The notes below the pieces were generated by a model. It was not told the DNA's origin, made no database searches, and saw nothing but the letters and a program-made list of their open reading frames with translations. Of a stretch of 64,000 nt of DNA, positions 1 through 25,221 are shown piece by piece (position 1 is the stretch's first letter; the number at the start of each line of letters is the position of its first letter). Made by a program: the position numbers and the translations under genes. Source of the DNA: Neolentinus lepideus HHB14362 ss-1 (Eukaryota; Basidiomycota; Agaricomycetes; Gloeophyllales; Gloeophyllaceae); NCBI GenBank assembly GCA_001632425.1, contig KV425554.1:418634-482633 (forward strand), read 5' to 3'.

Positions 1-1185
1 GCGACCTTTCCCTACGTCCGCCAAGACCACTCGCCCCAGTCCCTCTTCGGCCCCGACGCCTCCCTGGGCCCGTACCAGAGCCGCTCGGACGCCATCTACG
101 GCGAGCCTCTCCCCATAAACGCCGAGTCCGGCGCCATCCACCGGTACCAGCCCGTCCACCACTCCCCGCACACGCCCTACCACGAGCTCGACGACCCCAT
201 CAAGCTCGAAGAGTCCCACGTGATCGTGCCGTCCCAGCAGTTCTACCCCGCGCGCCACCCGCACATCCCCCAGCACGCCCACTCGTATCCTTACCCGCCA
301 CAACTCCCCATCCAGCACACCGACGACGCCGCGTCCAAGGAGACTCAGTACCTCCGGAGACGGTGCAACAACTGCCACACAACCGAGCCCCCCTCATGGC
401 GCCGGTCCACTCTCAACCCAGGCAAGATCGTCTGCAACAAGTGTGGCCTCTACGAGCGCACGCACTTGAGACCACGACCGCTCCGCTTCGACGAGCTCCG
501 AGCCGGTGGCAAGGGCCGGAAAGCAAGCGGCGCCATGGGCGTGCAGCGGAAATCGAGCCCCAAGGTCAAGAAGGAGCCCAACGGCACGTCGCCCGTCCCT
601 GGTGGCACGATCTCCAGGCGCGGCAGCGTGAGCAGCATCGCCAGTTCGGTGCACTCTGGCAGCGGCATGAGCGACTGGGACGATAACGGTCAGCATCCCT
701 CTGTCACTTCTACAGTACATGAAAATTAAATGGCATTTCTGTACGCAGTTTCTGTCTATTCGAACAGCTCCAACCCGCCCTCATCCTACCCGTCCCCTCA
801 GACGTTCTCCATCCCCATCCGAGATCCCGCGAGCGCGTCCCCGCCCTCGTCGGCAGCCGGCATACGACTCCCGCCGGCGCCCATGAGCGACCTCCACCCG
901 CACTCCCCGCACCTGCCCCTGCAAGGCTCGCCCCTGCAGCACACCGCCAGCGCGCACAGCTCCCCGCAACAGCCCCCCGCCGACCTGCGCGTGCCGGCGA
1001 AGAGCCAGACCGTGCCCGCGTACGAGTACGAGCGCGCGGGGGACGCGTTTATGCGGCGCGGGTCGCTGCCGGTGCCGCTCCCCGGGTACGGGCAGGAGAC
1101 GGGGTGGGTGTCTGTGGAGCGGGACGCGGGCGCGCGGGACTCTGGCGCGCACGTGCGGCTGAGCCCCGAGGCTATGGCGGCGTAA
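1..1185 (+). CDS. GATA-type zinc-finger transcription factor, 5' end missing
   Basis: The gene is open from the first base, so its N-terminus lies outside the window. Model: exon 1-688, intron 689-748 (60 nt, phase 1), exon 749-1185 with a TAA stop; about 374 residues are visible. A single GATA finger starts near residue 122 of the visible part (CNNC, then CNKC) with the WRR and CGLYERTH signatures. The two cysteine pairs are 19 residues apart by my count, against 17-18 in classical GATA fingers. A basic tail follows (RPRPLRFDELR, lysine/arginine-rich), as expected for DNA binding to GATA motifs in the nucleus. The rest is Pro/Ser/His-rich low complexity, typical of activation or interaction regions. 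Family membership is clear. Which pathway it controls (nitrogen, iron, light or development) cannot be told from this fragment. Confidence 0.85.
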
Positions 1186-4898: not shown

Positions 4899-6193
4899 CT
4901 ACATCGGATGTCCGCCCTTTCCGCTGGGCGAATGAAGCGAATAAGTCGAGACTGGTGACCGTAGGTATCGGAATGCTTGCCGAGAGTATGATTCCGTAGG
5001 AGTCGGCTCTAAGCCGCTCTCGATATCGCCTGCTCTTCCTCGCATGCGTGAGGACTTTCCAATATCTGCGTCGTCTCGAATTCTCCTGCGCGAATCAGCT
5101 GCGCTGATGCCCAGGACACGGGACATGCTAGACAGCGCCCCGCCTACTACTCGTGCGCTCACCCACTGGGCGATGTTTCCGCCTGGGAGGAGGCTGACCA
5201 GGTCTTTGGCATCCCAGAAGTCGCGGTGGTGCGTGATGTGCCCCGAGTCATTGAAACGCAGCCTCGTTATCACGTGTAATTGTAAGTGCAGAGGGCTGGG
5301 CAGCATGAAGTTGAGCAGAGGAACTGAAATAGCTGGGTCACTGGGGTGGATGTACGTAGACGGATGCGATGAACTTCCGTGGGCATTCGGTAGAGCAAGT
5401 GACGAGGACATCGGTGTGTCTGGATGGGCGAAACGACCGGCTGAAGCAGTTGCGAAGCGGTCGGAATGAAGGCCGGGGAGAATTAGGATATTAAAAGTAT
5501 GTTCAATGACACATTGCCTGTGCCCATCTACATCGAGAATCAGCGCTGTCTTTCGTGCGCAGAAACTTACGTCCAAAAACCATGCAGCCAGGACACAAGA
5601 CCACAAGGACAAAGTGACGCTTACCGAAGCTTTCACTTTCTGAGATTTCTCCAACCTCTGTCCAGACACGGAGCGCCTGGAACAAGTTATGGCTGGCTTC
5701 ATCCCCTTCTAACAAATCTTGCTTCCCGAGGAGCATATATAGTACGACCAGTGGTCTTGGTACGTTTAGTCTAGAGAGTCGGTTTGTCAAGGAGTAGATA
5801 TCACATAGGACCGATCGTGACGTCGCGGTCAGGAGAGGATTCTCGTATCTGTAAATGCTTCCGCGTGTCAGCGACGGTGTCCAAGAAGTGACATTGCATA
5901 GAATACCGCTTACACTGAAAGAATATAGCACGCCAACGATGAAAAGGTGAGCCGGAGTTCCACCTCGAAGCTGAGATTGTTAGAAACTAACCAGCATTAG
6001 CTTCATAAAATCGTTCAATAGCATCCAAAGTAGATGTATGGCCATCTCCTTCTCCATAGACCAGATCACAAACCTCCAGCGCCGTAACATGTCGAGATAC
6101 AATTGAGAGGTCGCTTGTGCTAGAATTTCTAGCTATCGTCGGCCTCCCCTCAGACGGCGCACTTGGGAATGCAATCGAGTTCGTGTTTGCCAT
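4899..6193 (-). CDS. SnoaL/NTF2-like conserved fungal protein
   Basis: Five-exon model: 6193-5992, a single base at 5914, 5848-5625 and 5527-4899, with introns 5991-5915, 5913-5849 and 5624-5528; 351 residues. The exon list counts four coding pieces because one is the single base. The protein carries a fungal SnoaL/NTF2-like core: FYEANAVYENPLLTATS near residues 62-78, VIEHTFNILILPG, then ITHHRDFWDAKDLVSLLPG. The family is conserved in fungi but its biochemical role is not established to my knowledge; NTF2-like folds often bind small hydrophobic ligands. The C-terminal third is basic and low complexity. Joining exon 1 directly to the third piece shifts frame and hits a stop within seven codons. 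The lone T at 5914, between a CAG acceptor and a GTAAGC donor, restores the conserved Val. It is divergent from the ketopantoate reductase gene, 223 bp away. Confidence 0.8.
5914..5914 (-). other. predicted one-nucleotide microexon
   Basis: On the minus strand the order is donor GTTAGT at 5991, acceptor TTTCAG ending at 5915, base T at 5914, donor GTAAGC at 5913, a CTGAC branch-point-like motif, and acceptor TTTACAG ending at 5849. The flanking introns are 77 and 65 nt, normal for this genome. The G from exon 1, this T and the A of the next exon make GTA (Val). That fits the conserved Ala-Val-Tyr-Glu-Asn-Pro context and keeps the frame open. Confidence 0.6.
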
Positions 6194-24474: not shown

Positions 24475-25221
24475 ATCCCCATTTAGGCTCGTGACCACCC
24501 TCTCGATCGAGCGATTGAGGGCNNNNNNNNNNNNNNNNNNNNNNNNNNNNNNNNNNNNNNNNNNNNNNNNNNNNNNNNNNNNNNNNNNNNNNNNNNNNNN
24601 NNNNNNNNNNNNNNNNNNNNNNNNNNNNNNNNNNNNNNNNNNNNNNNNNNNNNNNNNNNNNNNNNNNNNNNNNNNNNNNNNNNNNNNNNNNNNNNNNNNN
24701 NNNNNNNNNNNNNNNNNNNNNNNNNNNNNNNNNNNNNNNNNNNNNNNNNNNNNNNNNNNNNNNNNNNNNNNNNNNNNNNNNNNNNNNNNNNNNNNNNNNN
24801 NNNNNNNNNNNNNNNNNNNNNNNNNNNNNNNNNNNNNNNNNNNNNNNNNNNNNNNNNNNNNNNNNNNNNNNNNNNNNNNNNNNNNNNNNNNNNNNNNNNN
24901 NNNNNNNNNNNNNNNNNNNNNNNNNNNNNNNNNNNNNNNNNNNNNNNNNNNNNNNNNNNNNNNNNNNNNNNNNNNNNNNNNNNNNNNNNNNNNNNNNNNN
25001 NNNNNNNNNNNNNNNNNNNNNNNNNNNNNNNNNNNNNNNNNNNNNNNNNNNNNNNNNNNNNNNNNNNNNNNNNNNNNNNNNNNNNNNNNNNNNNNNNNNN
25101 NNNNNNNNNNNNNNNNNNNNNNNNNNNNNNNNNNNNNNNNNNCAATATCGACCAGCCTCTCTAGAGCGATTCTGCCCTCAATCGCTCGATCGAGAGGGTG
25201 GTCACGAGCCTAATCCCCATT
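24475..25221. mobile_element. TIR DNA element with 9-bp target duplication, interior unassembled
   Basis: 39-bp perfect inverted repeats lie at 24484-24522 and 25174-25212, beginning TAGGCTCGTGACCACCCTCT. They are flanked by the direct repeat ATCCCCATT at 24475-24483 and 25213-25221. The interior is almost entirely a run of N (24523-25142, 620 bp), and the left repeat ends exactly at the gap, so the repeats may be longer. A 9-bp duplication with long inverted repeats fits the Mutator-like (MULE) superfamily; hAT or KDZ elements usually give 8 bp. At about 730 bp it would be non-autonomous, but the gap size may be nominal. Confidence 0.75.
24523..25142. other. assembly gap (620 N)
   Basis: A continuous run of unknown bases inside the inverted-repeat element. 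Its position between the perfect repeats suggests the assembler failed at the hairpin or at a repeat shared with other copies. Confidence 0.98.

What the first reader, a model, noticed from the sequence alone, without database searches (positions are those of the whole stretch)
5849..5991. A one-nucleotide coding exon
Between conserved exons of the SnoaL-like gene, direct splicing (5991 to 5849) shifts frame and meets TGA within seven codons. A single T at 5914, flanked by TTTCAG and GTAAGC, gives two normal-sized introns (77 and 65 nt) and makes GTA/Val exactly where the family has Ala-Val-Tyr-Glu-Asn-Pro. Other AG...GT pairs in the interval give a wrong phase, a 21-nt intron or a stop. Single-base exons are extremely rare and challenge exon-definition models.
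Basis: partly seen in the sequence, partly recalled or inferred. Interest (0 to 1): 0.85.

Follow-up and report, generated by a model that had tools for sequence, protein, structure and literature searches.

The report
Conserved single-base exon in mushrooms
In this fungus, and by protein evidence in many groups of mushroom-forming fungi, one gene appears to need an exon of a single base to read correctly, a rare extreme of gene splicing that automatic genome annotation tends to get wrong.

Summary
On the minus strand, exon 1 (6193-5992, phase 1) and the next exon (5848-5625, phase 2) differ by one base. T5914, between TTTCAG and GTAAGC, makes two GT-AG introns (77 and 65 nt) and restores a 351-aa protein. 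The window alone is suggestive only: AGNGT with two introns of at least 45 nt arises in 17% of random intervals, YAG-N-GTAAG in 0.08%. Relatives carry the case. Of 35 scorable anonymous relatives, 33 read Ala-[Ile/Val/Thr]-Tyr-Glu-Asn-Pro; of 73 scorable genome-annotated models outside Polyporales (39 genera), none does. They have other or extra residues exactly there, with marks expected of a phase-1 donor, a phase-2 acceptor and one missing base. Clean scorable models come from Sebacinales and a nested Polyporales clade (one taxonomic caveat). So the exon looks ancient in Agaricomycetes and lost in Polyporales. Single-base exons are already known (plant APC11, VPS55; Fusarium CYP621A); listings showed no basidiomycete case. 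No relative's DNA and no RNA read was available.

The parts
5992..6193 (-). Exon 1 (202 nt, ATG start, ends in phase 1 at GCT G)
   Evidence: aligned with relatives
5915..5991 (-). Intron 1, 77 nt, GTTAGT...TTTCAG; best-placed branch-point match CTCAC 33 nt before its end (weak); a CTAAC whose A is base 12 of the intron looks like a decoy
5914..5914 (-). Single-nucleotide exon (T on the coding strand), middle base of Val codon G-T-A
   Evidence: comparative evidence
5849..5913 (-). Intron 2, 65 nt, GTAAGC...TTACAG, branch-point match CTGAC 19 nt before its end
5625..5848 (-). Exon 3 (224 nt), starts A|TAC GAG AAT CCT (YENP)
5528..5624 (-). Intron 3, 97 nt, GTAAGC...TGTAG
   Evidence: junction SESF|DGHRQ matches relatives
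4899..5527 (-). Exon 4 with stop codon; completes the 351-aa NTF2/SnoaL-fold protein
   Evidence: single copy in own genome

Best explanation
T5914 is a real, probably constitutive, single-nucleotide coding exon of a single-copy NTF2/SnoaL-fold gene, and it is old. The two flanking short introns are each recognised as introns (intron definition) and removed one after the other: the acceptor AG of intron 1 and the donor GT of intron 2 lie one base apart, so both cannot be occupied at once, but after either intron is removed the T is fused to a normal-sized exon and the other intron becomes an ordinary substrate. Skipping T or retaining either intron ends translation at 68-73 aa, so splicing of this one base decides whether the protein is made. 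Shown: sequence, phases, splice sites, frames, and a shared deviation at this codon in relatives' gene models. Inferred: that it reflects a one-base deficit met by AG|T|GT in relatives, the order of removal, constitutive inclusion, and an origin after Sebacinales diverged with one loss in Polyporales.
For: Window: phase 1 to phase 2 mismatch of one base; unique AGNGT site with TTTCAG and GTAAGC; the only in-frame model of 103 that gives EANA-x-YENP. Anonymous relatives: 33 of 35 scorable (of 43 among P0001-P0152) have exactly one residue, 17 I, 15 V, 1 T; I and V both have T as middle codon base. 32 of these 33 also run straight through the exon 3/exon 4 junction, as spliced cDNA would (31 by pattern, P0012 by eye; P0084 does not). 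Genome models outside Polyporales: 0 of 73 scorable (of 89) have V/I/T. The differences are patterned: 72 of 73 begin with a residue whose codon can start with A or G; 19 of 20 two-residue inserts are S/G + an A/G-codon residue, as if a GTRNGT donor were moved 4 nt to repair the frame; 12 of 12 one-residue models are S, R or G, as if the transcript's extra base were laid on the neighbouring splice-site G; 24 of 41 longer inserts end in S or R, i.e. AG|N of a phase-2 acceptor. Close pairs: Suillus model GY against V in a 96% identical anonymous protein; Lactarius 99%. Two proteins that appear to read through both introns (P0078, P0098) each allow exactly one YAG-N-GTRNGT site, with introns of 55/59 and 51/57 nt (4% and 3% of shuffled peptides). 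Clean scorable genome models fall only in Sebacinales and in one nested Polyporales clade, support 1.0.
Against: No RNA read or relative's genomic DNA was seen; relatives' gene structures are inferred from proteins, and the cDNA origin of the anonymous proteins is inferred too. P0084, one of the 33, keeps an insert at the exon 3/4 junction and is probably genomic (it lies in the Polyporales clade). Six of the 33 lie in the Polyporales or Sebacinales clades and so do not bear on the contrast. The closest relative P0001 (92% identical, 1,494-base contig) does not show the junction: it begins inside intron 2 and lacks part of exon 3; P0059 and P0085 also begin with intron-like sequence before YENP. 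P0156 (cDNA-like, beside Hymenochaetales) has Arg at the site. One genome model (Crepidotus, CQ) fits none of the patterns. With the looser YAG-N-GT pattern, 24% and 33% of shuffled peptides allow a site, and P0078 then allows two. P values treat congeners as independent; by genus: 38 of 39, 13 of 14, and 12 of 19 with at least one S/R ending. Intron 1 has only a weak branch-point match.
Confidence: 0.93

Rival explanations
1. A single ordinary intron spans 5991-5849 and a one-base assembly or sequencing error (or a recent frameshift, i.e. a pseudogene) makes the exons look out of phase.
For: In the window alone the data are compatible with a lost base; AGNGT with two introns of at least 45 nt arises in 17% of random intervals.
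Against: A deviation at the same codon marks 73 of 73 scorable non-Polyporales genome models from 39 genera (73 of 74 if Cristinia is counted by NCBI's order); independent assemblies would not share it by error. The rest of the 351-aa frame is intact and conserved.
Confidence: 0.03
2. The gene uses other splice sites that keep the frame, e.g. donor 5987 with acceptor 5857, adding residues (NAGYIYRYENP), or a 16-nt exon (NAAVFYAIYENP).
For: Such in-frame models exist, and annotations of relatives show comparable added residues.
Against: They need poor sites (GTTTCT donor, GAAG acceptor, GTCACT donor) and add residues beside a nearly invariant motif; of 35 scorable anonymous relatives only two show added residues, and those appear to read through both introns. 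The motif lies in a confidently predicted beta strand.
Confidence: 0.03
3. The one-base exon is real but its inclusion is regulated, so that skipping or retention makes an untranslatable RNA and works as an off switch. (This refines the best explanation rather than excluding it.)
For: Every non-productive route tested stops at 68-73 aa; P0001 suggests incompletely spliced transcripts in a close relative. Selaginella VPS55 has transcripts with and without its 1-nt exon (passages of PMC8831610).
Against: No condition-dependent data at all; P0001 may be a library or assembly artefact.
Confidence: 0.15

Closest known systems
Single-nucleotide exon of APC11, Arabidopsis and other land plants (Guo and Liu 2015, PMC4674806, parts 1-2 of 3 read; PMC8831610, search passages seen)
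   Same: One coding base between two introns, needed for frame, missed by annotation, conserved over a large clade, absent from lineages with intronless copies.
   Different: Plant gene with a 422-nt interval in Arabidopsis, proven by constructs in protoplasts; here the introns are short fungal ones and there is no experiment.
1-nt microexon of VPS55 in plants (PMC8831610, passages seen)
   Same: Well conserved 1-nt exon with a GTRAGT donor, missing from annotations.
   Different: Transcripts with and without the exon are documented; none is known here.
One-nucleotide exon of CYP621A in Fusarium (Nelson and Syed 2026, PMC12940212, parts 1-2 of 3 read)
   Same: Fungal 1-nt exon inside a conserved motif, 139-nt interval in F. 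graminearum against 143 here, same phase-one to phase-two logic.
   Different: Ascomycete P450, exon base G (AGGGT), reported for Fusarium and its teleomorph names only and backed by RNA reads; here T (AGTGT), unrelated gene, Basidiomycota, apparently several orders.
Stwintrons (spliceosomal twin introns; only listed titles and abstract starts seen)
   Same: Two fungal introns in one place, removed in consecutive reactions.
   Different: In a stwintron the internal intron splits a splicing element of the external one; here both introns are complete and one base stays in the mRNA.

Membership tests
Single-nucleotide exon | Exactly one base flanked by AG and GT, with both flanking introns of splicable size | tested here: met
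   77 and 65 nt, TTTCAG|T|GTAAGC
Single-nucleotide exon | The base is required for the reading frame and a conserved motif | tested here: met
   Without it 73 aa, with it 351 aa; AVYENP conserved
Single-nucleotide exon | The base is present in mature mRNA | tested here: inconclusive
   No read from this species; anonymous, mostly cDNA-like relatives have the encoded residue (33 of 35 scorable); closest relative P0001 does not cover the junction
Single-nucleotide exon | Splice sites conserved in orthologous genomic DNA | tested here: inconclusive
   No orthologous DNA (searches found none); inferred only from peptides that look like translated intron
Stwintron [D1,2] | Removal of the inner intron recreates the donor of an outer intron, split after its first base, and the product is in frame | tested here: not met
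   Using the donor so formed (GCT|GTGTAAGC) gives a stop after 82 aa; both introns are complete on their own
NTF2/SnoaL-like fold | Overall fold of NTF2-like proteins | tested here: met
Pfam SnoaL/NTF2 families | Score above the curated cut-off | tested here: inconclusive
   Window protein (357-aa version): none at E up to 1; in 44 relatives NTF2_SigF matched 10, best E 0.00043, SnoaL_2 matched 3, best E 0.098

The most novel reading that the evidence does not exclude
One single-base exon has been kept in place since before Hymenochaetales split from the other mushroom orders, across at least seven orders, because inclusion of the base is a conserved switch between productive and unproductive splicing; the clade is then a natural experiment in how a 1-nt exon survives and how it is lost (Polyporales).
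Probability: 0.15. Interest if true: 0.82.

Novelty: new member of a known kind. Interest (0 to 1): 0.63.

Why it matters
Very few single-nucleotide exons are described. This would be a further gene, the first in Basidiomycota as far as the listings I searched show, and one spread over several orders of mushroom-forming fungi, with Sebacinales as an outgroup and an apparent loss in Polyporales. It can be tested at once in public RNA-seq of model mushrooms, it suggests that dozens of annotated genomes share the same error, and the marks used here (S/G starts, S/R ends, a lone S/R/G) could help find other one-base exons from protein databases alone.

Tried and rejected
Looked for relatives' DNA in viral contigs and genome contigs: none encodes a relative. 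No paralogue in the own genome. The first protein query (357 aa) used a wrong exon-4 acceptor with six extra residues; corrected. A 21-nt intron with a 7-nt exon is in frame (353 aa) but was rejected: I judge the intron too short for this fungus (recalled), and it adds two residues. P0001 was examined as a possible direct cDNA; it starts inside intron 2 and is not usable. U-insertion RNA editing was not tested; it is not needed, because a T between AG and GT is there in the DNA. The genus-to-order sorting is mostly from memory; look-ups confirmed ten taxa and corrected one: Cristinia sonorae is filed by NCBI under Agaricales although its protein sits inside the Polyporales clade. Counted by NCBI, clean models outside Polyporales would be 1 of 74 instead of 0 of 73, and Polyporales 19 of 19. 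The third protein search came after those counts and adds: clean Serendipita models P0153 (V, motif YKNP), P0154 (V), P0155 (I); P0157 without the region; Suillus P0160 with GY; a shortened Lentinula model P0161; anonymous P0158 V, P0159 V, P0156 R. The 16 unscorable genome models and 8 unscorable anonymous proteins were dropped from the counts (motif missing, truncated or altered); of those genome models, three (P0094, P0141, P0142) were still labelled artefact in the tree, and six (P0075, P0137, P0141, P0142, P0143, P0147) were shown. Only the best 120 of 272 hits were listed and examined. One search compared 40 chosen genome models with 35 anonymous ones, not all; the tree used 92 of the 161 proteins plus the window, was made with FastTree, and was rooted by me on Sebacinales.

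Full report
Setting. The window lies in a 33.8-Mb, 168-contig assembly. The gene's nearest named relatives are Gloeophyllum trabeum and Heliocybe sulcata, and the window protein groups with them in a tree, so the organism is most likely a member of Gloeophyllales (Heliocybe's order). The gene is single-copy in its assembly.

The observation. On the minus strand exon 1 (6193-5992) ends GCT G, in phase 1; the next conserved exon begins at 5848 with A|TAC GAG AAT CCT (YENP), in phase 2. Splicing them directly gives a stop after 73 aa; inserting the T at 5914 gives one frame of 351 aa through exon 3, a 97-nt intron and exon 4 to a stop ending at 4899. The two introns are 77 nt (GTTAGT...TTTCAG) and 65 nt (GTAAGC...TTACAG). 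Intron 2 has a good branch-point match (CTGAC, 19 nt before its end); intron 1 has only CTCAC, 33 nt before its end, besides a CTAAC too near the donor.

Chance. In 20,000 first-order Markov intervals of 143 nt per pattern, AGNGT with two introns of at least 45 nt arises in 17%; with a pyrimidine before AG in 8%; with a GTRNG donor in 1.0%; with GTAAG in 0.08%. The window alone is therefore suggestive but not decisive.

Relatives. Protein searches gave 161 proteins. Of P0001-P0152, 43 are anonymous sequences (jgi, lgn, ena), most on contigs of about 1-2 kb by the listings. Of these, 35 are scorable at the site: 33 have exactly one residue between Ala and YENP (17 Ile, 15 Val, 1 Thr) and 2 have long inserts. 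Of the 33, 32 also run straight through the exon 3/exon 4 junction (31 by pattern, P0012 by eye), so they look like spliced cDNA; P0084 does not and is probably genomic. Six of the 33 (P0068, P0069, P0084, P0132; P0086, P0089) lie in the Polyporales or Sebacinales clades; the other 27 all have Ile or Val, though only 17 of the 27 were placed in the tree. Of 89 genome-annotated proteins outside Polyporales, 73 are scorable and none has V, I or T as a single residue; 61 have more than one residue and 12 have a single S, R or G. They come from 39 genera. In Polyporales, 20 of 20 genome models have a single residue (14 T, 2 V, 3 K, 1 Q); this group includes Cristinia, which NCBI files under Agaricales but whose protein pairs with Steccherinum inside the Polyporales clade.

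What the annotation differences say. If the true structure has a phase-1 donor, one base, and a phase-2 acceptor, programs that cannot place a one-base exon must invent a repair, and the repairs should carry marks. They do: 72 of 73 start with a residue whose codon can begin with A or G (the last base of exon 1), against 66% expected; 43 of 61 multi-residue inserts start with S or G (A|GT or G|GT, the retained donor), against 17% expected; 19 of 20 two-residue inserts fit a donor moved 4 nt to the GT inside GTRNGT; 12 of 12 single residues are S, R or G, the result if a transcript's extra base is laid on the adjacent splice-site G; 24 of 41 longer inserts end in S or R, i.e. AG plus the third codon base, against 21% expected. 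Seven of 41 end in V, readable as G of the intron-1 acceptor + T + the next base (Heliocybe, Rickenella, Serpula and others). Congeners are not independent, so the P values are indicative; counted by genus the marks stand at 38 of 39 (first residue), 13 of 14 (two-residue) and 12 of 19 (at least one S/R ending). One model, Crepidotus CQ, fits none. These readings of the errors are mine; no gene model's coordinates were seen.

Direct comparisons. One search paired 40 chosen genome models with the nearest of 35 anonymous clean proteins. The Suillus model has GY where a 96% identical protein has V, readable as G|GTTA of a GTTAGT donor like the window's own. The Lactarius hengduanensis model carries a 15-residue insert where a 99% identical sequence has V. 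Marasmius has G against V (86%), Schizophyllum commune GA against I (86%), Amanita brunnescens NPTFSV against I (90%).

Apparent read-through of both introns. P0078 and P0098 run in one frame with inserts of 39 and 37 residues. Each allows exactly one YAG-N-GTRNGT site with introns of at least 45 nt: 55/59 and 51/57 nt; shuffled peptides reach that in about 4% and 3%. With the looser YAG-N-GT, shuffles reach it in 24% and 33% and P0078 allows two sites. For P0098 the base must be T, the middle base of a Val codon.

History. With the tree rooted on Sebacinales, whose three informative genome models are clean (Serendipita: V, V, I), deviating models lie in Hymenochaetales, Gloeophyllales, Jaapiales, Russulales, Atheliales, Boletales and Agaricales (scorable), and in Thelephorales (Thelephora, unscorable but altered there), while a single Polyporales clade of clean models is nested among them, support 1.0. 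The simplest reading is one origin after Sebacinales branched off and one loss in Polyporales. P0156, a cDNA-like sequence beside Hymenochaetales, has Arg at the site and may be an exception.

Mechanism. The intron-1 acceptor and intron-2 donor are one base apart, so the introns most likely leave in turn (inference). After either one is removed the remaining junction is ordinary: CTAATGCTGT|GTAAGCGG or TTTCAG|TATACGAG. Guo and Liu offer the same combination of intron definition and stepwise removal for APC11. Skipping, or retaining either intron, stops translation at 68-73 aa. The order of removal and any regulation are unknown. Against the reading: the closest relative P0001 starts inside intron 2 and lacks part of exon 3, and P0059 and P0085 also start in intron-like sequence, so none of these gives junction evidence.

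Known cases. Single-nucleotide exons are reported for plant APC11 (PMC4674806, parts 1-2 of 3 read), plant VPS55 (PMC8831610, search passages) and Fusarium CYP621A (PMC12940212, parts 1-2 of 3 read, which calls itself the first for a fungal gene). One-nucleotide exons are also reported in mitochondrial genes (PMC12308204, passages; PMC5436844, listing only). The listings (14 papers; 7; 2), and the 20 shown of 2,326 and 20 of 105, named no basidiomycete case in title or abstract start; most subscription papers are not in the library.

Verdict. Most likely a real and ancient single-base exon, new as a gene and as a fungal group but not as a kind. RNA reads across the junction remain the missing proof.

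Noticed in passing
P0001, relative of window 5848-5913: The closest relative, a 92% identical protein on a 1,494-base jgi contig, begins inside intron 2 and then lacks much of the conserved start of exon 3, although its later intron (SESF|DGHRQ) is removed; an aberrant isoform or an artefact.
   Followed up: partly
P0026: The protein filed as Cristinia sonorae (NCBI: Agaricales) pairs with Steccherinum inside the Polyporales clade; perhaps a misidentified record.
   Followed up: partly
P0156: A cDNA-like sequence beside Hymenochaetales has Arg at the exon's codon; if real, its one-base exon may be G, or the structure differs there.
   Followed up: no
window 24523-25142: A run of 620 N, an assembly gap or withheld stretch.
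   Followed up: no
window 220-729 (+): An open frame with a GATA zinc finger, Pfam PF00320, E 2.2e-08.
   Followed up: partly
window 5971-5991 (-): The first 21 nt of intron 1 (GTTAGTTTCTAACAATCTCAG) contain donor, branch-point and acceptor motifs in miniature; probably a decoy. Removing it with a 7-nt exon is even in frame.
   Followed up: partly
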